Shown here piece after piece: positions 5,163 to 19,366 of a DNA stretch of 64,000 nt. The notes under the pieces were generated by a model that had not been told where the DNA came from, did no database searches, and worked only from the letters and a program-made list of their open reading frames with translations. The stretch is from the NCBI RefSeq assembly GCF_009761675.1, contig NZ_QUZH01000023.1, positions 1 through 64,000 of the forward strand. Direction: 5' to 3'. The stretch comes from Bhargavaea sp. CC-171006. Its GTDB lineage: Bacteria; Bacillota; Bacilli; Bacillales_A; Planococcaceae. Every line of letters starts with the position of its first letter. Position 1 is the first letter of the stretch. The translations under genes and the position numbers were made by a program.

Positions 5163-6324
5163 AGAACTTCAGGCATGTGTGGCAACGCTTGAGAGCCTGT
5201 TGCCTGAAATGACCGAAATCAGAAGGCATTTGCATCAATATCCGGAACTGTCCCACCAGGAAGTGGAGACCCCGAAGTTCATTGCAGAATATTACCGAAA
5301 ACTTGGATTGGATGTCCGGACGGAAGTAGGCGGGCGGGGCGTCGTGGCCACATTCCGTGCATCAGAACCCGTCAAGACGATTGCGTTCAGGGCCGATTTT
5401 GACGCACTCCCCATCCAGGACGAGAAAGATGTCCCATACAAGTCGAAGAACCATGGCGTATCTCATGCATGCGGACATGACGGGCATACGGCCGCACTTC
5501 TTGGATTTGCCAAAACCTTGGTCGAAAACAAGGACCGGATCCGGAACAACGTCGTGCTGATCCATCAATTCGGTGAGGAGCTTTACCCGGGCGGCGCCAT
5601 GGCGATGATCGAAGACGGCTGCCTTGATGGGGTGGATGCCGTCTACGGCTGCCATCTTCAGAGCATGATGCCTGCCGCCAAGATGTTTTTCCGGGAAGGC
5701 TTTATCCAGGCGGCAGTGGACACATTTGAAATTACGGTCAATGGGAAAGGCGGGCACGGTGCGGTGCCACATGAAGCAATCGACCCGATTGTTGTGGCCT
5801 CCCATATCGTGACGGCCCTGCAGACGATTGTCAGCAGAAGCACGGATCCTCTTGAGCAGCTGGTCGTTTCCGCCGGGTCCATCCATGCAGGGGATGCCAA
5901 CAATGTGATTCCCGGTGAGGCGGTGCTGACTGGAACAATTCGCTCCTATGCTCCGGAAACCAGGAAAATGGCTCGGGAGAAGCTCATAAAAATTGCTTCC
6001 AGCGTTGCGGATGCTTTGGACGCCCGTGCCGAGGTCGAACTGGAAAGCGGATATGATGCGCTGTGGAACCATCCCGAAGAAACGAAGGTTGTGAAAAAAG
6101 CCATGTTGACTCTCTTCTCGGAGGAGGATGTATTGGAAACGCCGCCGGTGATGCCGGGAGAGGACTTTTCCTACTACACACAACATGTTCCCGGTTCCTT
6201 CTTTTTCGCGGGGGCCCGTCCCGAAGGGGAAGCATATCCTCACCACCATGCAAAATTCGACTTTGATGAATCGGCTATGCTGAATACGGCAAAAACATTT
6301 ATGGCAATCCTGCATCAATACTGA
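5125..6324 (+). CDS. M20 family amidohydrolase (hippurate/N-acyl amino acid hydrolase type)
   Basis: The 399-residue protein has the M20D layout: RRHLHQYPELSHQE near residue 33, RADFDALPI (Asp91), SHACGHDGH with Cys116 and His118 as metal ligands, and HQFGEELYPGG with the catalytic glutamates 151-152. Enzymes of this group release amino acids from N-acyl or aryl conjugates. The ATG at 5125 is preceded by AGAGGGGGAG and lies inside the end of the amidohydrolase gene. The longer frame from 5017 would only duplicate upstream coding sequence. With the AbgT transporter it resembles the AbgT-AbgAB logic of E. coli, although this is the AmhX/hippurate-hydrolase branch rather than AbgB itself. Confidence 0.9.
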   Translation: MSPQTNLKPSLDEELQACVATLESLLPEMTEIRRHLHQYPELSHQEVETPKFIAEYYRKLGLDVRTEVGGRGVVATFRASEPVKTIAFRADFDALPIQDEKDVPYKSKNHGVSHACGHDGHTAALLGFAKTLVENKDRIRNNVVLIHQFGEELYPGGAMAMIEDGCLDGVDAVYGCHLQSMMPAAKMFFREGFIQAAVDTFEITVNGKGGHGAVPHEAIDPIVVASHIVTALQTIVSRSTDPLEQLVVSAGSIHAGDANNVIPGEAVLTGTIRSYAPETRKMAREKLIKIASSVADALDARAEVELESGYDALWNHPEETKVVKKAMLTLFSEEDVLETPPVMPGEDFSYYTQHVPGSFFFAGARPEGEAYPHHHAKFDFDESAMLNTAKTFMAILHQY

Positions 6325-6337
6325 AGCGTTTTTCAAA

Positions 6338-6366
6338 AGGCACCCTGTCCAGGGTGTCTTTTTTAT
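6338..6366 (+). terminator. Terminator of the AbgT-hydrolase operon
   Basis: The arms AAGGCACCCTG and CAGGGTGTCTT form an 11-bp stem with a tiny loop, followed by TTTTATT. Confidence 0.85.
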
Positions 6367-6443
6367 TTCGAGAAACACTCAATTTAAATATTCCATCTGT
6401 TTGGAATTATGCTACGATAGTGAGCATATAAGGGGGGGATCGG

Positions 6444-8189
6444 ATGGTGAATAAACCTCAAGAAGAGCGCCATCTCTCGTCAGCCAGAGCCGAAGCTGTG
6501 TTCAATGTGGCCAATGCGGTAAACTCCACATTGGAGTTGGATGAACTATTTGAACTGACCCTTTCTGAAACCATTCGGGCAATTCCAGATGCCGATGGGG
6601 GTGCACTGTTTTTATTTGACCCGGCGTCACGGCTCCTGACATGCCGAGCTTATGTGAATTTCGATGAAAAAGTCGAGCAGATCCGGCTTTTGCCCGGTGA
6701 ATCATTTACAGGAGACTGCTATAAGAAGAGAAAGCCGATCCTCCTTTCGAACAGAAATGAAATCACCGGATACCCCCGCTCAATGAGACCTGAAAACAGG
6801 CAATTGCTGAACCATTCCATGGCCATGCATCCCAGCAATAACTCGTACCGGGCGATGAGTGTCCCGCTGATTACGGCCAAAGAGGAATGCATCGGTGTCG
6901 TGACACTCAACGGCTTTGCCGAGCAAGGCACGTTTACTGTTGCAGATGTTGAGCTCCTTGAAACAATCGCCGGACTCGCGGCAACCGCATTGGAAAGAGC
7001 CAAACTTTACGAAGATATCAAAATTAAAAACCATACATTCAAAACCATGATTGACTATCAGCAGAGCCAACTGGTCAATATGAACTCCGGTAAAGGACTG
7101 GACATCATGCTGGAGCAGTTGTTTGAAGTAGTCGGAAAGCCGCTTTCGCTTTTGACGGTCTATGGAGAGGCTTACAATACCTCTTCAATTCCAGTGGATC
7201 TGAGGCCGGTCAATGAATATATGATCAGGGACGGGCGTCAGCTTCTCGGCAAATTGCTGATCTACTCAAATAGCTCTAATGACCTTAGGCAGACCGATGA
7301 TTATTTTATCCAGCAGAGTCTCTTGTTTTTCGCTCTGGAAATCAATAGGCAGGCAGCGGTCCGACAAGTAGAGGTACGTTATAAAACGGAACTGATGGAT
7401 AAATTGATGAAGGGGATTTTGACTGAAGACTTCCTGGCTAAAGCAGCAAGTCTCGGATTGGATACGGCGGGTGCATTCCTGCCGGTAGCTGTGCGAACCG
7501 GGAACTCAAAACCGGCCCGGCCGATTGATCAGCTGATGAAGCAAAATGAAATAGCAGTGTTTCTGGAGATGGAGATTGGCAGGGTGTTTCCGGGAAGTCT
7601 AGTCGTATTGCATGATCAAATTTATCTCTTGTTGCTGGCGGTCAACCCAAAAGCGAATGACAAAGAGATACAACGACGTCTGTCGGCAATTGCAGAAGAA
7701 ACCGAACGATTTTCAAATGAATACGGGGAAACTGCGAATGCCAGATTCGGTGTGGGAATGTTGGTTCAGCGGATCGAAGAATTGCCGGATTCTCTTCAGT
7801 CTGCGATAGATACACTCAAACTTATGGAAGAATCCAATTGCCGGGAGCGGATCGCAGACAGTTCCAGATTTCTGCTCGAACGACTGATTTCGGGAAGTTC
7901 AGGAAAGGAAGTCGGTCAGTTCATTAATACGTTTCTCGGTCCAATCTACAGATACGACCGGGATAAAGGTACGGAGCTTGTAAAGACATTGCAAGCTTAC
8001 TGCAGAAATCTGCAACGTCCTGGCCATGCTGCAAAAGAACTTCATATCCATACGAATACCCTCCAGTACAGGATCAAGCAAATCTCCCGTCTATTGGATG
8101 CCGATCTGGCTGATCCTGAAATCCTTCTGAATTTACAGCTCGCCTGCCGGCTTGCCGGAGATAATAATATTACAATTGATAATCAGTGA
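6444..8189 (+). CDS. GAF-PucR family transcriptional regulator
   Basis: The 581-residue protein starts with a GAF sensor domain (about residues 15-185, with PDADGGALFLFDPASRLL and GVVTLNGFAEQGTFTVADVELL). A middle region like the degenerate GGDEF segment of CdaR/PucR proteins follows. It ends in the PucR-type helix-turn-helix (about 513-571, with AAKELHIHTNTLQYRIKQIS). Proteins of this class activate adjacent catabolic operons on binding a small molecule. It follows the AbgT operon in the same direction with its own AAGGGGGGGAT binding site, behind a terminator. That suggests separate transcription and control of the upstream genes. Confidence 0.85.
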   Translation: MVNKPQEERHLSSARAEAVFNVANAVNSTLELDELFELTLSETIRAIPDADGGALFLFDPASRLLTCRAYVNFDEKVEQIRLLPGESFTGDCYKKRKPILLSNRNEITGYPRSMRPENRQLLNHSMAMHPSNNSYRAMSVPLITAKEECIGVVTLNGFAEQGTFTVADVELLETIAGLAATALERAKLYEDIKIKNHTFKTMIDYQQSQLVNMNSGKGLDIMLEQLFEVVGKPLSLLTVYGEAYNTSSIPVDLRPVNEYMIRDGRQLLGKLLIYSNSSNDLRQTDDYFIQQSLLFFALEINRQAAVRQVEVRYKTELMDKLMKGILTEDFLAKAASLGLDTAGAFLPVAVRTGNSKPARPIDQLMKQNEIAVFLEMEIGRVFPGSLVVLHDQIYLLLLAVNPKANDKEIQRRLSAIAEETERFSNEYGETANARFGVGMLVQRIEELPDSLQSAIDTLKLMEESNCRERIADSSRFLLERLISGSSGKEVGQFINTFLGPIYRYDRDKGTELVKTLQAYCRNLQRPGHAAKELHIHTNTLQYRIKQISRLLDADLADPEILLNLQLACRLAGDNNITIDNQ

Positions 8190-8195
8190 CTGAAG

Positions 8196-8225
8196 CAAGC
8201 CGTTGCACAAGCAACGGCTTGTTTC
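8196..8225 (+). terminator. Terminator of the PucR-like gene
   Basis: CAAGCCGTTGC / GCAACGGCTTG is a perfect 11-bp stem with an ACAA loop, then TTTCATTT. Confidence 0.88.
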
Positions 8226-8403
8226 ATTTGAACACTATTGGGCAAGCACTTTTGTGAGGTATAGATCTTCTATCCCGAGACATTGTCCTCATTCTTCCAG
8301 ACATTTGCTTTGGTTAGAATTCCAAAACTATTCTTCCTTGGGATATTGCTTGTAGAAAAAAATAAACCGAAAGGCGTAAGATATGGAGTGAGGCTTTATT
8401 CTC

Positions 8404-8482
8404 ATCCTTCTTGCACTTTTGCTTTGGTATGATAGAACAGCAGCAATTATTTTGAAAGTGAATAAAGATATTTTCAAATCAC
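8404..8482 (+). promoter_or_regulatory. Leader and probable promoter region before the first lipoprotein
   Basis: Between the terminator and the lipoprotein start (8226-8500) there is no gene. An extended -10 element, TGGTATGAT, lies at 8426-8434 without a good -35. After it TTTGAAAGTGA and TTTCAAATCACTTT offer two alternative pairings close to the ribosome binding site. This is a candidate only. Confidence 0.3.
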
Positions 8483-8500
8483 TTTATGGAGGGTGTTAAA

Positions 8501-9025
8501 ATGAAAAAAATCCGTCTAAGTATGATGATGATTGTCTTACTGATCATGTCATTAGCGGCATGTAATTCATCCGCTTCAGATCAAATGAGTTTAGATAAAG
8601 AGTTTGAAAAATACCGTGCAGAAGTGATTGAACCTTTAAATGACCGGGCTATCAAAACGGCAGAAATGGGCGGTCGATATACCATGTTGCTCGAAGAGAC
8701 GGAAGAAGCATATAACTATATCAATGATGAATTGATTCCATATGCAACAGAAACTAGGGACTTGGCTTTGGAAGCACAGGATGGGCTGGTTAATCCGGAG
8801 ATTCAAGAGTTAAATGAAATCTTGATTGAAAACCTGGAGCTGACACTAAAATCGTTTGCGAAGACAGCAGCCATGACTGAAATGAATATTCCACCAATCG
8901 AGGACGAGAAGGCTGCTTACGAAAAAACAGAAAAAATCTATGCTGAGCTCATGGAGTTACAAGAAGAGATCGATCGTACATCAGCTGAATATGAAAAGCG
9001 GGTAGATGCGTTAGCGGAAGAATAA
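8501..9025 (+). CDS. Helical lipoprotein, paralogue 1 of a four-member family
   Basis: The protein starts MKKIRLSMMMIVLLIMSLAAC, a lipoprotein signal peptide with lipobox LAAC, and continues as an all-helical, acidic protein of about 174 residues. Family words are EFEKYRAEVIEPLNDRA, AEMGG, YINDELIPYATETRDLA, QDGLVNPEIQELNE and ELMELQEEIDRTSAEYE. They recur in the genes at 9074 and 18217 and, weakly, in 18817. The ATG at 8501 is chosen because GGAGGGTG precedes it and the signal peptide begins there. I do not recognise a named family. Two paralogues belong to the LXG operon 9 kb away, so an immunity-type role is possible but unproven. Confidence 0.82.
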   Translation: MKKIRLSMMMIVLLIMSLAACNSSASDQMSLDKEFEKYRAEVIEPLNDRAIKTAEMGGRYTMLLEETEEAYNYINDELIPYATETRDLALEAQDGLVNPEIQELNEILIENLELTLKSFAKTAAMTEMNIPPIEDEKAAYEKTEKIYAELMELQEEIDRTSAEYEKRVDALAEE

Positions 9026-9073
9026 AGGTTCTCAATAAAAGATAAGTCCAATATTGGAGTGAGGTAGTATGAA

Positions 9074-9604
9074 ATGAACCGAAGAAGCTTTTTGCTCAGT
9101 TTGCTCATGATGGCTTTAATGTTCCTTGCCGCCTGCAGCAGTTCCGGAACTAGCTCCGGCTTGAATCCCGCTGAAGAGTTCGATCAATATCGGACGGAAG
9201 GGATCGAGCCGCTCCATGAGCGGTCTTTGGAACTCGCCGAAATGGGTGGTCATCTCAACGCCATGATTCCGCAGCCGGAAAAGGCCCGTGACTATATCAC
9301 CGACGAGATGATTCCTCATATCAAAGAAACACAAGGGTTGGCCGAAGAGTTGCAGGACGGCCTGATCAATCAGGAAATCAAAGAAGTGAATCAAATTACG
9401 ATTGATCAACTGAATCTGATGGCCGATTCGTTCAATAAGCAGGCGGAGTTCCTTGAGCTGCACATCTCACCGGTAAGCGATGAATCGTATGCAGAGTCTG
9501 AAGCGGTCTATGCGGAGATCATGCAGCTGCAGGAGCAGATTGACGCGAAAACTTCAGAGTACAACACCAGCTTGGATGACCTAGTGCAGAAATACCGAAA
9601 ATGA
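9074..9604 (+). CDS. Helical lipoprotein, paralogue 2 of a four-member family
   Basis: The 176-residue protein has a signal peptide ending LMFLAAC and the same helical body as its neighbour: EFDQYRTEGIEPLHERS, AEMGGHLNAM, YITDEMIPHIKETQ, LQDGLINQEIKEVNQ and EIMQLQEQIDAKTSEYN. It lies 48 bases after paralogue 1 in the same direction, so the two are probably co-transcribed and arose by tandem duplication. The mature protein should sit on the outer face of the membrane. Function is unknown; the link to the LXG operon through paralogy is the only clue. Confidence 0.82.
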   Translation: MNRRSFLLSLLMMALMFLAACSSSGTSSGLNPAEEFDQYRTEGIEPLHERSLELAEMGGHLNAMIPQPEKARDYITDEMIPHIKETQGLAEELQDGLINQEIKEVNQITIDQLNLMADSFNKQAEFLELHISPVSDESYAESEAVYAEIMQLQEQIDAKTSEYNTSLDDLVQKYRK

Positions 9605-9614
9605 TACGCGAAAT

Positions 9615-9647
9615 GAGCTGGTGCCCGGGGGCATCGGCTCTTGTTTT
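9615..9647. terminator. Hairpin between converging genes
   Basis: GAGCTGGTGCC / GGCATCGGCTC pairs with two G-T pairs around a CGGG loop. TTGTTTTA follows on the plus strand. The minus-strand gene stops at its edge, so it could serve both directions. Confidence 0.6.
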
Positions 9648-9819
9648 AGAAGTAGTTGACCATTTTGATGACGACATAAATAAATGTTGCGGCTATGCAT
9701 ATCAGATAAAGGCTGCCGAGCAGGAAAAAGAGAAGGTTGACGAGGCGGGATTGCGTCTGTCTGGATGTCATGCTGGTCATGGTGAAGAGTGCCTCCTGTC
9801 TTTCCGTGTGATTGCTCAT
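9646..9819 (-). CDS. Small membrane protein of unknown function
   Basis: A minus-strand frame of about 57 codons encodes a polar N-terminus (SNHTERQEALFTM) and then a single long hydrophobic helix, LVNLLFFLLGSLYLICIAATF, ending KMVNYF. That composition is unlike a random shadow frame, and the plus-strand frame here looks non-coding. No strong ribosome binding site is visible at any of the three possible ATGs (9876, 9831, 9819), which lowers certainty. It is divergent from the regulator at 9956. Confidence 0.45.
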   Translation of the reverse strand: MSNHTERQEALFTMTSMTSRQTQSRLVNLLFFLLGSLYLICIAATFIYVVIKMVNYF

Positions 9820-15306: not shown

Positions 15307-15437
15307 TCTTTCGACCGTTTAGGCATCATTGCAGCTCTCAAAAGGAGCCTTTCGGCACCTGCCGTTAATCCTATACTTACAGTCCTTTCACTTTGCTATG
15401 ATAAAAGTAACTGAATTGGAAAAGGAGATTTCGCGCG

Positions 15438-15797
15438 ATGGCCTTATTAACTGCTTTGATCGCACAATTCCAACTGAAGAAAGAACAGTTGAGAAGACTG
15501 ACTGTCTGTGCGGTGAATCTGGGTAATTTGGACGGAGACTTCTCGCAAAACAGAAGTCTTTTGGAGGAGCCGGAGCTAACGGTAAAAACATGGAAAGGAA
15601 TGCTTTCGGATAAGTTTCTTGAATATCGTGACGTAATGGCTGTGCAATACGACGATATTTCCAGTGTCCAGCTCACCCTTTCCAGACAGATGCTCAGTGA
15701 AAAGATTGCCCAAATCAAACTGGAAATCATGGCGCTTGAAGCCAGCATCGCAGCGGAGCGGACAAGGCTGGCTGCTATTCGTGCAGGAAAGGACTGA
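15438..15797 (+). CDS. LXG-operon helper protein, DUF5082/YwqH-like
   Basis: The 119-residue protein is almost entirely alpha-helical. A first helix, LLTALIAQFQLKKEQLRRL, is followed by a conserved-looking WKGMLSDKFLEYRD turn and a long C-terminal coiled coil (LSEKIAQIKLEIMALEASI). This is the layout of the YwqH-type proteins encoded first in LXG toxin operons. There they pair with a second small protein and the LXG domain to form the type VII secretion substrate complex. It has AAAGGAGAT before the ATG, and its stop codon overlaps the next start (TGATG). The family match rests on layout and context. Confidence 0.72.
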   Translation: MALLTALIAQFQLKKEQLRRLTVCAVNLGNLDGDFSQNRSLLEEPELTVKTWKGMLSDKFLEYRDVMAVQYDDISSVQLTLSRQMLSEKIAQIKLEIMALEASIAAERTRLAAIRAGKD

Positions 15798-16081
15798 TGT
15801 CATTGACTAATCAGATCAAGGTCGAATTTGAAACCGTCAGGCAGTCGGTTTCAAACATGGAAAGCATGACCGAATCTCTGGACCCCGCTCTTCCCAAGGA
15901 TCTTGCGGGAAGCAATGTGCTGGATCTTATTAAGAAGATCAACCAGCTCAACCTTATCCTTGAACAGCAGGGGGAGGAATTCAAGAGGATCCTGAGGCTT
16001 AATCACGAGTCGGTCAGGGAATCAGCGGATATGCTTGATGAAACAGATCATCAGCTGTCCATTTCAATGGATGCGAATTAA
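15797..16081 (+). CDS. LXG-operon helper protein, DUF5344/YwqI-like
   Basis: This is a 94-residue helical hairpin of WXG100-like size. It starts SLTNQIKVEFETVRQSVSNM, has a central turn around LDPALPKDLAG, and ends ESADMLDETDHQLSISM. The ETD near the end is typical of small type VII partner proteins. It is translationally coupled to the gene before it and 12 bases from the LXG gene after it. Known systems use such proteins as targeting factors that bind the LXG domain. Identity is inferred from size, helical pattern and order. Confidence 0.72.
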   Translation: MSLTNQIKVEFETVRQSVSNMESMTESLDPALPKDLAGSNVLDLIKKINQLNLILEQQGEEFKRILRLNHESVRESADMLDETDHQLSISMDAN

Positions 16082-16093
16082 GGGGGTGAAGAC

Positions 16094-18175
16094 ATGAAAA
16101 CGCTGGAGGTAAGCTCGCTGCTGGAAGGAATCGATGCGGTTGTCCGACAGATCGAGTCTCAGACGGCACAATTAAAGGAGCTTGAAAGAGCGGTTGCGTC
16201 ATTCACCGATCTCGGAGATTCGTTCACGGGAGAAGGCGGGAACGCCATACGCCGTTTTTATCGGGAATGGCATCTTCCTCTGATTGCCTACAGGTCACTG
16301 ACACTGGAAAAGTATGAAGGACTTTTGCAAAACCTGAAACAGGCGACATCAGCCCTTGAGCCTGCTTCTGACGGATATATTCTGGAATCGTTTCTTGAGG
16401 GGCCGCTGATGAATGGAGTAACAAAGTCGGAAAGTGTAACGGCAGCTCTGGTCGACGAAGGGAACAGCTACATGGATGCGGTGAGCGACATCATCAGCTT
16501 GCCGAGGCTAAAGGACGATGCATTTCGGGAGGGTGTCCGTGACGCAAAACGGCATATCCTTCAAACCAGCCAAGATCTAAATACATATAATCATAGCCAG
16601 ACCGGGGAACTGTCCGCACTTGACGCTGATTTAGATCTGATGGACGGCTACTTGAAAGACTTGTCCGGTATCTTTGGAGATTCGTCATTCCGGATTGAGA
16701 CATATGATCTCCAGGTTCAGGATTTCAGCGGATATCAAAAGCTGCGCGTAAATCTGGCGATGGAGCACTTCAAAGAGTTCTCCGTTAGATTTTCAATGTT
16801 CTTCTCAAGTTTCTGGGCGATATTTGGCCCACACCTCATCCAGAGCGGAAAATCCGATGAATTCGTTTATGAGATGCTCCGTGGTTACGAGCGACGTTAT
16901 GAAGAGCTAGAAAGGATAATTGAGTCTGATTTGGAATCCCGGGGGGAGGAGTTTATCCGAGGTCCTCACCAGGTGGCACGAGGGAAAGAGATCGACCTGG
17001 CCGCTATTGATGCAATGGACGGTATTTCAATTGAAACATACAATTTGAGGGGCGTTCCCCTGCACTATGCCATCATTAATGAAAAGTTGGTCATATTTAG
17101 GGATAATCCGAACCTTTGGTACTCGATTCAGAATGCAGAAGTCACGCTCCTCGAGGAAGCTATGGCAACCACCGCGAAAAACGTTGCTATGGAAGCTGGG
17201 GATAGGTTTCTCGGCAAGTTAGGCAGTAAACTGCCTGGCTCAACTACAGTCACAGGGAAAATTGAGGGGTCTCCGGAAATTCCATTCACAGGGAAAAAGT
17301 CAGGAGAAATCGTCAAAGAAGAGATTTCAGAAAACATCCAGAAGAAGATCCCGCTTTGGGGTGAAATCATTTCTGCCGATGTTCCTAAAGCGGGAACCAA
17401 ACAGGTCATTGTTTATCTGTCCGGTGATGGTGTCCAGTATGATCGCCGGGTGAGCATGACACTTGGAAAGGACGGGGTACTCTCCATCAAGGAGTGGTAT
17501 ACCGGTGAGCTGAACACTCTTAAGCAAAAAGATCACGATGAAGTTACTTTCAGCGATCTCTGGAATTGGACACAGAATAATACAGACCCGAACTTCAGTA
17601 AAGATTCGCCGGAAGAAGCGAAACAGGCAGTGAATGATTTTGCGCTCAAGGGAAATCAGCCGGAAGGATCTGTGAAGGGAATGGGCTTGGACCTCAACAA
17701 ACTTGAATTTACAGATGGAGTGGATATCAACACAACAACGGTAAACGAAGTCCCAATCAATTACAGTGTGGTCGGTCAGGAACTCGTGATATTCCCGGAT
17801 AATCCCGATGTTCATTACTCAATTCAAAACGTAGAGCACGGCAAACTCAATGAGGTGCTCGGAAGTCTTGCCAAGCGGACGCTGGAGAGTGCCGTCGATG
17901 AGCAAATCGGGAGTGGCATCGGAAAAATCAAGGGTATGGACGGTTTTGACGAGTATCTGAAACGGCTGCCTGGACAGGACACGTCTGAAGTGATCAAAAG
18001 CTCAGCCTCTCAGTTTGCGCAAAACCAGATTCCCGGATGGGAAAAAATCAAAAGTGCACCAGGTCCGTCAGCAGGTGAAAAGGAAGTTCTCCTGACCATC
18101 AGCGAAGACGGTAAAAAACCGTCGGGCGTCAAACTGTTCCGGCTCAATACGGACGGAACCATCACACTGTATTAA
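16094..18175 (+). CDS. LXG-domain polymorphic effector with a duplicated C-terminal module
   Basis: The 693-residue protein starts with an LXG-type helical domain (about 1-215: LEVSSLLEGIDAVVRQIESQ, then FTGEGGNAIRRFYREWH). This is the type VII secretion targeting domain of Bacillota toxins. A helical linker (215-300) follows. Residues 311-467 and 543-693 are two copies of one module: VPLHYAI..KLVIFRDNPN and YSIQN in the first, VPINYSV..ELVIFPDNPD and YSIQN in the second. Each ends in an IPxWxxI segment and a beta-rich tail (GKDGVLSI / NTDGTITL). I recognise no nuclease, NADase or lipase motif. The activity should lie in the C-terminal module and is unknown. No secretion-machine gene is in the window. 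Confidence 0.82.
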   Translation: MKTLEVSSLLEGIDAVVRQIESQTAQLKELERAVASFTDLGDSFTGEGGNAIRRFYREWHLPLIAYRSLTLEKYEGLLQNLKQATSALEPASDGYILESFLEGPLMNGVTKSESVTAALVDEGNSYMDAVSDIISLPRLKDDAFREGVRDAKRHILQTSQDLNTYNHSQTGELSALDADLDLMDGYLKDLSGIFGDSSFRIETYDLQVQDFSGYQKLRVNLAMEHFKEFSVRFSMFFSSFWAIFGPHLIQSGKSDEFVYEMLRGYERRYEELERIIESDLESRGEEFIRGPHQVARGKEIDLAAIDAMDGISIETYNLRGVPLHYAIINEKLVIFRDNPNLWYSIQNAEVTLLEEAMATTAKNVAMEAGDRFLGKLGSKLPGSTTVTGKIEGSPEIPFTGKKSGEIVKEEISENIQKKIPLWGEIISADVPKAGTKQVIVYLSGDGVQYDRRVSMTLGKDGVLSIKEWYTGELNTLKQKDHDEVTFSDLWNWTQNNTDPNFSKDSPEEAKQAVNDFALKGNQPEGSVKGMGLDLNKLEFTDGVDINTTTVNEVPINYSVVGQELVIFPDNPDVHYSIQNVEHGKLNEVLGSLAKRTLESAVDEQIGSGIGKIKGMDGFDEYLKRLPGQDTSEVIKSSASQFAQNQIPGWEKIKSAPGPSAGEKEVLLTISEDGKKPSGVKLFRLNTDGTITLY

Positions 18176-18216
18176 GATATACGGGATGAAATCGCCGAAG
18201 TTTAGGAGTAAAAGTA

Positions 18217-18762
18217 ATGAAACGATCTATATTTATGTTTTTCCTGGTGTTACTGTTGGCGTTATTCCTCGCTGCCTGCAACAGTGGCAATGGAGCAGAA
18301 TCACAGAATATCAGTGTCGAAAAAGAATTTGAAGAATATCGGAAGAATGTCCTCGAACCACTGGATGAGCGATCCTTCGAGTTCGCGGAAATGTTCAACC
18401 ACTCTGCTTCCATCATCGAACAACCCGAGGAATCTCACCGCTATATGGAGGAAGAAGTGATTCCCTTTATGGAAGAGACCCGAAAAATTGCAACTGATGC
18501 CCATGATGGACTGGTAAATGAAGAAATCAAGAAACTGAATGAGACTACGATCAAGTATTTGGATCTGACGGTCGATTCCCTTCAGAAGAGCGCTGAGTTA
18601 TCGGCAATCGAAGTTGCTACGGCGGATGTTGATACGGTGACCGAAGAAACGTACCAGAAGGCTGTTAAGATCCATGAGGAGAACATGGAGCTGCAAGAAA
18701 AAATAGAACGAACCGGAGCGGAAATGGACCGGCAAATCGATGCACTCGTCAATGAACAATGA
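18217..18762 (+). CDS. Helical lipoprotein, paralogue 3, in the LXG operon
   Basis: The 181-residue lipoprotein (signal peptide ending LALFLAAC) lies 41 bases after the LXG gene with TAGGAG before its ATG. It repeats the family words EFEEYRKNVLEPLDERSFEFAEM, YMEEEVIPFMEETRKIA, DGLVNEEIKKLNE and ENMELQEKIERTGAEMD. Position directly after the effector is where immunity genes sit in LXG loci. A lipoprotein would fit a toxin that acts at the outer membrane face or cell wall. That role is an inference; no experiment or known immunity family is recognised. Confidence 0.82.
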   Translation: MKRSIFMFFLVLLLALFLAACNSGNGAESQNISVEKEFEEYRKNVLEPLDERSFEFAEMFNHSASIIEQPEESHRYMEEEVIPFMEETRKIATDAHDGLVNEEIKKLNETTIKYLDLTVDSLQKSAELSAIEVATADVDTVTEETYQKAVKIHEENMELQEKIERTGAEMDRQIDALVNEQ

Positions 18763-18816
18763 TTCGGGCCGTATGGCCGGAACGCCATTAAGAGACCGGT
18801 GAATTGGAGGTGCATC

Positions 18817-19323
18817 ATGAAAAGATTGATCCGGCTGATGGGGCTGTTGCTGGTGTTCGCGCTGGCGGCTTGCAGTGGTCCGGGAATTGCAGCCGAATAT
18901 AAGGAATACAAAGAAGAGGGCAGCACTCCGATCTACCAGAATTCCATGGAACTGATTATGATGAGCACTCAGTTGAATGCCATTCTGGACAGTCCGGAGC
19001 AGGCCAATCAGTACCTGAAAACAGAAATGCTCCCGCTGGTTGAAGAATCCAAGGCATTGTCGGAAGATTGGCAGGGCCGTCTGACCCACGAAGAGCTCAA
19101 GGAGCTGAACGGGCTGAAAGGTCAGGAACTGGCCTTGCAGATTGAGTACCTCGGAAAGCTTTCCGAAGTACTTGAACTGACCGCAGAGCCAGGGGAAGAC
19201 TTTGAACAAAAGATAGCTGAACTGTCCAGAGGAATTTCTGATAAACAGGAGCAGCTCGATAAGGTTACAGATGATTATGCAGCGAAGTATGAGGAACTGG
19301 ATGGGAAGTACGGATCTGAATAA
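18817..19323 (+). CDS. Helical lipoprotein, divergent paralogue 4, in the LXG operon
   Basis: The 168-residue lipoprotein starts MKRLIRLMGLLLVFALAAC and keeps the family plan in diverged form: EYKEYKEEGSTPIYQNSMEL, QLNAILDSPEQANQYLKTEMLP, THEELKELNGLKG and a C-terminal coiled coil with ELDGKYGSE. ATG 18817 is preceded by TTGGAGGTG; the GTG frame from 18799 only adds polar residues before the signal peptide. It is 54 bases after paralogue 3, and a terminator follows, so it is the last gene of the LXG operon. Confidence 0.8.
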   Translation: MKRLIRLMGLLLVFALAACSGPGIAAEYKEYKEEGSTPIYQNSMELIMMSTQLNAILDSPEQANQYLKTEMLPLVEESKALSEDWQGRLTHEELKELNGLKGQELALQIEYLGKLSEVLELTAEPGEDFEQKIAELSRGISDKQEQLDKVTDDYAAKYEELDGKYGSE

Positions 19324-19334
19324 CATGAAAATTT

Positions 19335-19366
19335 CCCGGGAATGCACGCTTCCCGGGTATTTTTTA
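19335..19366 (+). terminator. Terminator of the LXG-lipoprotein operon
   Basis: CCCGGGAA / TTCCCGGG with a TGCACGC loop, then TATTTTTTATT. Confidence 0.9.

What the first reader, a model, noticed from the sequence alone, without database searches (positions are those of the whole stretch)
15438..19323. LXG effector operon with lipoprotein genes in the immunity position
Two small helper proteins, an LXG protein and two lipoproteins form one compact operon ended by a terminator. In LXG loci the gene after the effector usually encodes immunity. Lipoproteins there imply that the effector acts outside the cytoplasm, on membrane, lipid II or wall. The effector has no toxin domain that I recognise. 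Together this is a candidate undescribed effector-immunity pair.
Basis: partly seen in the sequence, partly recalled or inferred. Interest (0 to 1): 0.75.

Follow-up and report, generated by a model that had tools for sequence, protein, structure and literature searches.

The report
Type VII effector with lipoprotein guards
A Bhargavaea operon encodes a type VII-secreted (LXG) effector whose doubled C-terminal module belongs to an undescribed family of exported bacterial proteins, followed by two surface lipoproteins that probably protect the cell from it; the overall design is known, but the module family and its change of likely protector are new.

Summary
15438-19323 is a compact five-gene operon in Bhargavaea: YwqH-like and DUF5344 helpers, a 693-aa LXG protein, two lipoproteins, and a conserved terminator with one compensated pair change. 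The genome carries a complete EssC.

The LXG C-terminus is a tandem duplicate of a ~165-aa module that no family library knows. It recurs as a single copy in LXG proteins of Alkalihalophilus plasmids and a prophage, and as Sec-exported ~255-aa proteins. In most of those loci the next gene encodes a 52-64-aa two-TM protein, a likely immunity protein. Here lipoproteins (predicted four-helix bundles), found only in Bhargavaea, hold that place.

The lipoproteins occur in all seven genus genomes with EssC and not in the one without. Two genomes carry deletion scars: effector cassette gone, lipoproteins kept. In another species the cassette is ~100% identical on a ~77% background, ending 7 bp past the effector stop.

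Best reading: a T7SSb effector acting outside the cytoplasm, probably on the membrane, with lipoprotein immunity. Toxicity and neutralisation are inferred. Lipoprotein immunity has a precedent (TslA/TilA), so this is a new variant, not a new kind.

The parts
15349..15437 (+). Conserved upstream (promoter-containing) stretch of the operon
   Evidence: Kept upstream of the cassette in G005 and G006, and kept without the cassette in G002 and G007
15438..15797 (+). YwqH-like helper (Lap-like), 119 aa
   Evidence: PF16888 E 7.8e-7, below gathering cut-off
15797..16081 (+). DUF5344 helper (Lap-like), 94 aa
   Evidence: PF17279 E 1.1e-14, above cut-off
16094..18175 (+). LXG effector, 693 aa
   Evidence: PF04740 E 4.6e-53 over residues 2-201
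16991..17518 (+). Module copy 1 (undescribed exported module)
   Evidence: Internal repeat and profile matches
17675..18172 (+). Module copy 2
   Evidence: 33% identical to copy 1; reaches the C-terminus
18217..18762 (+). Lipoprotein 3 (effector-adjacent), 181 aa; candidate immunity protein
   Evidence: LAAC lipobox; four-helix bundle model, pLDDT 92
18817..19323 (+). Lipoprotein 4, 168 aa; candidate immunity protein
   Evidence: LAAC lipobox; same family
19335..19357 (+). Intrinsic terminator
   Evidence: Hairpin plus T run, conserved in five genomes with a compensated pair change in G001
8501..9025 (+). Lipoprotein 1, distant paralogue of the same family
   Evidence: 42% identity to lipoprotein 3 (alignment)
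9074..9604 (+). Lipoprotein 2, distant paralogue of the same family
   Evidence: 39% identity to lipoprotein 3 (alignment)

Best explanation
This is a T7SSb effector-immunity operon. The two helpers and the LXG domain target the 693-aa protein to the T7SS (shown only by family membership and the presence of EssC). The effector part is a tandem pair of an undescribed ~165-aa module. The same module is carried elsewhere by single-module LXG proteins and by Sec-exported bacteriocin-like proteins, so it acts outside the producer's cytoplasm (supported). It most likely damages or binds the target cell's membrane from outside, without catalysis (inferred). The two lipoproteins, four-helix bundles anchored on the outer face of the membrane, most likely protect producer and kin by binding the module or shielding its target (inferred). 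Lipoprotein genes are kept and multiplied when the effector is lost, as orphan immunity genes are (scars shown; protection inferred).
For: LXG, helpers and EssC. Module relatives in LXG proteins of A. pseudofirmus plasmids and of a prophage, and in signal-peptide proteins. In L091, L092, L104, L112, L078, L079 and L103 the next gene encodes a small protein with a TM1-Lys-rich turn-TM2 layout, the immunity position. No conserved catalytic set in the module. Lipoproteins restricted to Bhargavaea and present in 7 of 7 EssC-positive and 0 of 1 EssC-negative genomes. Deletion scars: in G001 the effector 3' end is joined to sequence after lipoprotein 2; in G002 the operon's upstream region is joined to the ywqH 3' end; lipoproteins are kept in both. 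Effector cassette ~100% identical between window and G006 on a 75-80% background. Precedents: immunity lipoprotein TilA from a multi-copy array, TipC orphans and paralogues, EsxX/ExiCD orphans.
Against: No toxicity or binding data. The transferred cassette ends at the effector stop and leaves the lipoproteins behind, so pairing is not strict. Lipoproteins 1 and 2 sit at a site with no LXG gene. The same module has a different partner (two-TM proteins) elsewhere. No strong TM segment in the module (highest 19-residue hydropathy mean 1.14) and the module's fold is unresolved. Neither helper has the C-terminal F/YxxxD/E signal described for Lap proteins.
Confidence: 0.55

Rival explanations
1. 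The lipoproteins are not immunity proteins. They are a genus-specific lipoprotein family with its own surface function that happens to flank a recombination-prone LXG cassette; immunity to the effector is encoded elsewhere or not needed.
For: They also occur at a second site without LXG and remain in genomes without the effector. The cassette was exchanged without them. Other bearers of the module use two-TM proteins in that position.
Against: They share operon, terminator and, in G002 and G007, the LXG operon's upstream region. They are absent from the only genus genome without EssC and LXG genes. No other immunity candidate lies between effector and terminator. Copy number varies from 2 to 5 per genome.
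Confidence: 0.25
2. The module is not toxic: it is an exported binding domain (adhesin- or envelope-binding), and LXG and Sec are only its export routes.
For: Tandem duplication and absence of catalytic residues suit a binding domain; no toxin family match.
Against: The module sits at the extreme C-terminus of polymorphic LXG proteins, where toxins sit. The Sec-exported versions are bacteriocin-sized and are followed by a small two-TM gene in L091, L092, L104 and L112. One LXG version is on a prophage.
Confidence: 0.12
3. The module is an envelope enzyme (lipid II, phospholipid or wall hydrolase, in the manner of TelC or TslA), and the lipoproteins are its extracellular inhibitors.
For: Extracellular action and lipoprotein or membrane-anchored inhibitors match TelC/TipC and TslA/TilA.
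Against: Across 11 divergent modules the invariant residues are P, Y, Q, N, I, G and S; only two Asp are nearly invariant and no His, Cys or Glu is. No match to enzyme families or folds, though the fold model was poor.
Confidence: 0.08

Closest known systems
LXG effectors of the T7SSb with Lap helpers (YwqH/YwqI/YwqJ type of B. subtilis; Tel proteins of S. intermedius)
   Same: Helper-helper-LXG-immunity gene order, LXG domain, EssC in the genome
   Different: C-terminal module not in any library searched, and duplicated
TslA/TilA of S. aureus (PMC10730906)
   Same: T7SS effector next to a variable, multi-copy lipoprotein array; TilA is a demonstrated immunity lipoprotein
   Different: TslA is an N-terminal lipase with reversed layout and TilA is DUF576. 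Here the effector has normal LXG order and no lipase match, and the lipoproteins match no such family
TelC/TipC (PMC6193138)
   Same: Effector acting outside the membrane, surface-anchored immunity protein, paralogues and orphans
   Different: TipC is TM-anchored with alpha/beta fold; here four-helix lipoproteins
EsxX/ExiAB/ExiCD (PMC12744356)
   Same: Unrelated immunity families for one LXG toxin, and orphan immunity genes
   Different: EsxX has a glycine zipper; this module shows none and no strong TM segment
Geobacillin 26 / alicyclobacillin 24 (PMC13176240)
   Same: The Sec-exported relatives of the module have the same size and layout; a small two-TM ORF also follows alicyclobacillin 24
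   Different: No sequence similarity to the module (hhalign probability 0.1%)
YkyA lipoproteins (PF10368)
   Same: Helical lipoprotein; nearest PDB fold neighbour 2AP3 is a staphylococcal protein that I recall as YkyA-like (family from memory)
   Different: Profiles align only in the signal peptide; Bhargavaea has a separate true YkyA

Membership tests
LXG effectors of the T7SSb | N-terminal LXG domain | tested here: met
   PF04740 E 4.6e-53, above cut-off
LXG effectors of the T7SSb | Two small helical partner genes upstream | tested here: met
   DUF5344 above cut-off; YwqH-like E 8e-7 but slightly below cut-off
LXG effectors of the T7SSb | T7SSb machinery in the genome | tested here: met
   EssC 1627 bits at C30; large EsaA-like protein beside it, by eye
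LXG effectors of the T7SSb | F/YxxxD/E export signal in a helper | tested here: not met
   Motif absent from both helpers. TslA's partners also lack it, so it is not an exclusion criterion
LXG effectors of the T7SSb | EssC-dependent secretion | not testable with these tools
   Needs a secretion assay
Cognate immunity lipoproteins (TilA-like role) | Lipoprotein encoded next to the effector | tested here: met
   LAAC lipoboxes; 41-nt gap to the effector
Cognate immunity lipoproteins (TilA-like role) | Neutralises or binds the effector | not testable with these tools
   Needs binding or rescue assay
Cognate immunity lipoproteins (TilA-like role) | Orphan copies in strains without the effector | tested here: met
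   G001 and G002 with loss scars; G003 and G007 ambiguous
TilA (DUF576) family proper | Sequence membership | tested here: not met
   Pfam scan of all 24 lipoproteins shows no DUF576-type family among the 25 most frequent families listed
Geobacillin 26 family | Sequence similarity to alicyclobacillin 24 | tested here: not met
   hhalign probability 0.1%; the search with alicyclobacillin 24 returned no module locus
YkyA cell-wall-binding lipoproteins (PF10368) | Match to the YkyA profile outside the signal peptide | tested here: not met
   hhalign aligns 20 signal-peptide columns only; no PF10368 match listed; fold similarity to 2AP3 weak

The most novel reading that the evidence does not exclude
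One undescribed antibacterial module is used both as a T7SSb LXG warhead and as a stand-alone Sec-exported bacteriocin, and its immunity partner has been replaced: small two-TM proteins in most lineages, surface lipoproteins in Bhargavaea, where the module was doubled.
Probability: 0.45. Interest if true: 0.62.

Novelty: new variant of a known kind. Interest (0 to 1): 0.52.

Why it matters
It defines a testable effector family shared by two export routes, with two unrelated candidate immunity families. If confirmed, it would show how an immunity partner is swapped while the toxin domain is kept. It also gives a natural experiment (effector lost, lipoproteins kept) for orphan immunity in a little-studied genus, and a second candidate case of lipoprotein immunity besides TslA/TilA.

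Tried and rejected
Geobacillin-26 homology of the Sec-exported relatives: rejected. YkyA membership of the lipoproteins: rejected. Module in phage genomes: none among 50,697 records; one prophage LXG and one Sec-type copy in IMG/VR contigs. Module elsewhere in Bacillota: only the query genome among 398 phylum-wide genomes. Hidden small two-TM gene between effector and lipoproteins: none; no convincing homologue in the Bhargavaea loci. Lipoproteins beside other LXG genes of the genus: none. Lipoproteins on plasmids: none. PADLOC gave only a weak AbiZ match to lipoprotein 4 (E 0.019), and PHROGs matched lipoprotein 3 only over its first 45 residues (signal peptide and a little beyond); both taken as chance.

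Full report
What is there. Pfam gives a YwqH-like helper (E 8e-7), a DUF5344 helper (E 1e-14) and an LXG domain (E 5e-53) followed by about 490 residues without a family. The last two genes encode related proteins with LAAC lipoboxes. The operon ends in a hairpin plus T run. A pattern scan alone would not distinguish it from chance, but it is conserved after the last lipoprotein gene in five genomes, and one of them has a compensated pair change. The genome is Bhargavaea (close relatives B. massiliensis and B. cecembensis). It has a full EssC and three LXG genes in all: this one, one beside the T7SS locus with a glycine-rich C-terminus, and one with an HNH-like C-terminus (those two domain readings are by eye).

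The effector part. Residues from about 300 to the end hold two copies of one module, 33% identical. NCBIfam and Pfam scans of the effector and of its relatives gave no credible module family, and neither did PHROGs or PADLOC. A profile of the copies found relatives in several Bacilli, and tblastn found it in plasmids of Alkalihalophilus pseudofirmus. They are of two kinds. In A. pseudofirmus OF4 and in an IMG/VR prophage contig the module, in single copy, ends an LXG protein. In other genomes and one IMG/VR contig it ends a protein of about 255 residues with an N-terminal signal peptide. Export by Sec as well as by the T7SS argues that the module works outside the cytoplasm. Invariant residues over 11 sequences are P, Y, Q, N, I, G and S, with two Asp nearly invariant and no conserved His, Cys or Glu. 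An enzyme is therefore not favoured. No segment looks strongly membrane-spanning and the predicted model is poor, so the mode of action remains inferred.

The partner position. After the module gene, L091, L092, L104, L112 (Sec type), L078 and L103 (LXG type) have a 52-64-aa open frame with two hydrophobic segments; L078 and L103 have two such genes in a row. L079 keeps one of the A. pseudofirmus pair beside an effector frame that lacks the LXG part. These are probable immunity proteins. The L093-L095 relatives do not show one. A similar small frame follows the class III bacteriocin alicyclobacillin 24, which is not a homologue of the module. The window has no such gene; lipoproteins take the place.

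The lipoproteins. Twenty-four genes were found, all in seven Bhargavaea genomes. In the window and its syntenic relatives they lie at two sites: behind the effector, and at a second site that in the window is 8501-9604. In 261 genomes of the family every hit outside the genus covered only the signal-peptide end, and in 399 of the class there was no hit outside the genus. They are absent from the one genus genome that lacks EssC and LXG genes; with eight genomes this is suggestive only. None lies beside another LXG gene. The predicted fold is a four-helix bundle at pLDDT 92. The best PDB neighbour is a staphylococcal protein, 2AP3, with a weak E-value; profile comparison with YkyA aligns only the signal peptide.

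Gain and loss. Intact effector cassettes are in G000, G005 and G006. G001 keeps only the last 70 codons or so, joined at a clean junction to sequence that follows lipoprotein 2. G002 keeps the operon's upstream region joined directly to the 3' end of the YwqH-like gene, then three lipoprotein genes. G007 keeps the upstream region and two lipoproteins; G003 keeps one lipoprotein at this site. G001 and G002 show loss of the effector with retention of lipoproteins; G003 and G007 could be loss or never-gained. Between the window and G006 the DNA is almost identical from 15469 to 18182, while neighbouring genes are 75-80% identical. The tract runs from within the first helper gene to seven bases past the effector's stop and excludes the lipoproteins. 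A second tract, about 5880-9220, includes lipoprotein 1. Exchange and loss of this kind are typical of polymorphic toxin loci (established knowledge). The transfer without the lipoproteins is the main point against strict pairing; G006 has lipoproteins of about 80% identity, with lipoprotein 3 duplicated.

Interpretation. Shown here: operon, family membership, duplication, relatives, genomic dynamics. Supported: extracytoplasmic action. Inferred: toxicity, membrane as target, lipoproteins as immunity. Precedents make the inference reasonable: TilA is an immunity lipoprotein from a multi-copy array (PMC10730906), TipC has orphan and non-protective paralogues (PMC6193138), and EsxX is met by unrelated immunity families with orphans (PMC12744356). 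Because a lipoprotein immunity protein for a T7SS effector is already known, the finding is a new variant. The new content is the module family, its two export routes and the change of the likely immunity partner.

Noticed in passing
window 5880-9220: A second tract 99-100% identical to G006 on a 75-89% background, covering the end of an M20 peptidase gene, part of a PucR-type regulator gene and lipoprotein 1; most of the regulator gene is missing in G006.
   Followed up: partly
window 9646-9780, minus strand: A 44-aa single-TM open frame (MTSMTSRQTQSRLVNLLFFLLGS...) convergent with lipoprotein 2, conserved across Bhargavaea; in G006 and G001 a further copy lies elsewhere.
   Followed up: partly
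L069 3831-5420 and 420-3817, minus strand: LXG protein at the T7SS locus with a glycine-rich hydrophobic C-terminus, followed by paralogous multi-TM proteins; looks like a TelE/EsxX-type membrane toxin with immunity proteins (by eye).
   Followed up: no
L068 4412-6389, minus strand: Solitary LXG gene with an HNH-like C-terminus followed by a SUKH-like immunity gene (by eye).
   Followed up: no
L103 3065-4984: An LXG effector with this module and two small two-TM genes beside the endolysin genes of a prophage contig: a T7SS effector carried by a phage.
   Followed up: partly
L114 25951-26139, minus strand: A 62-aa two-TM open frame lies just downstream of the class III bacteriocin alicyclobacillin 24; possible immunity gene, not mentioned in the passages of the paper that I read.
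   Followed up: no
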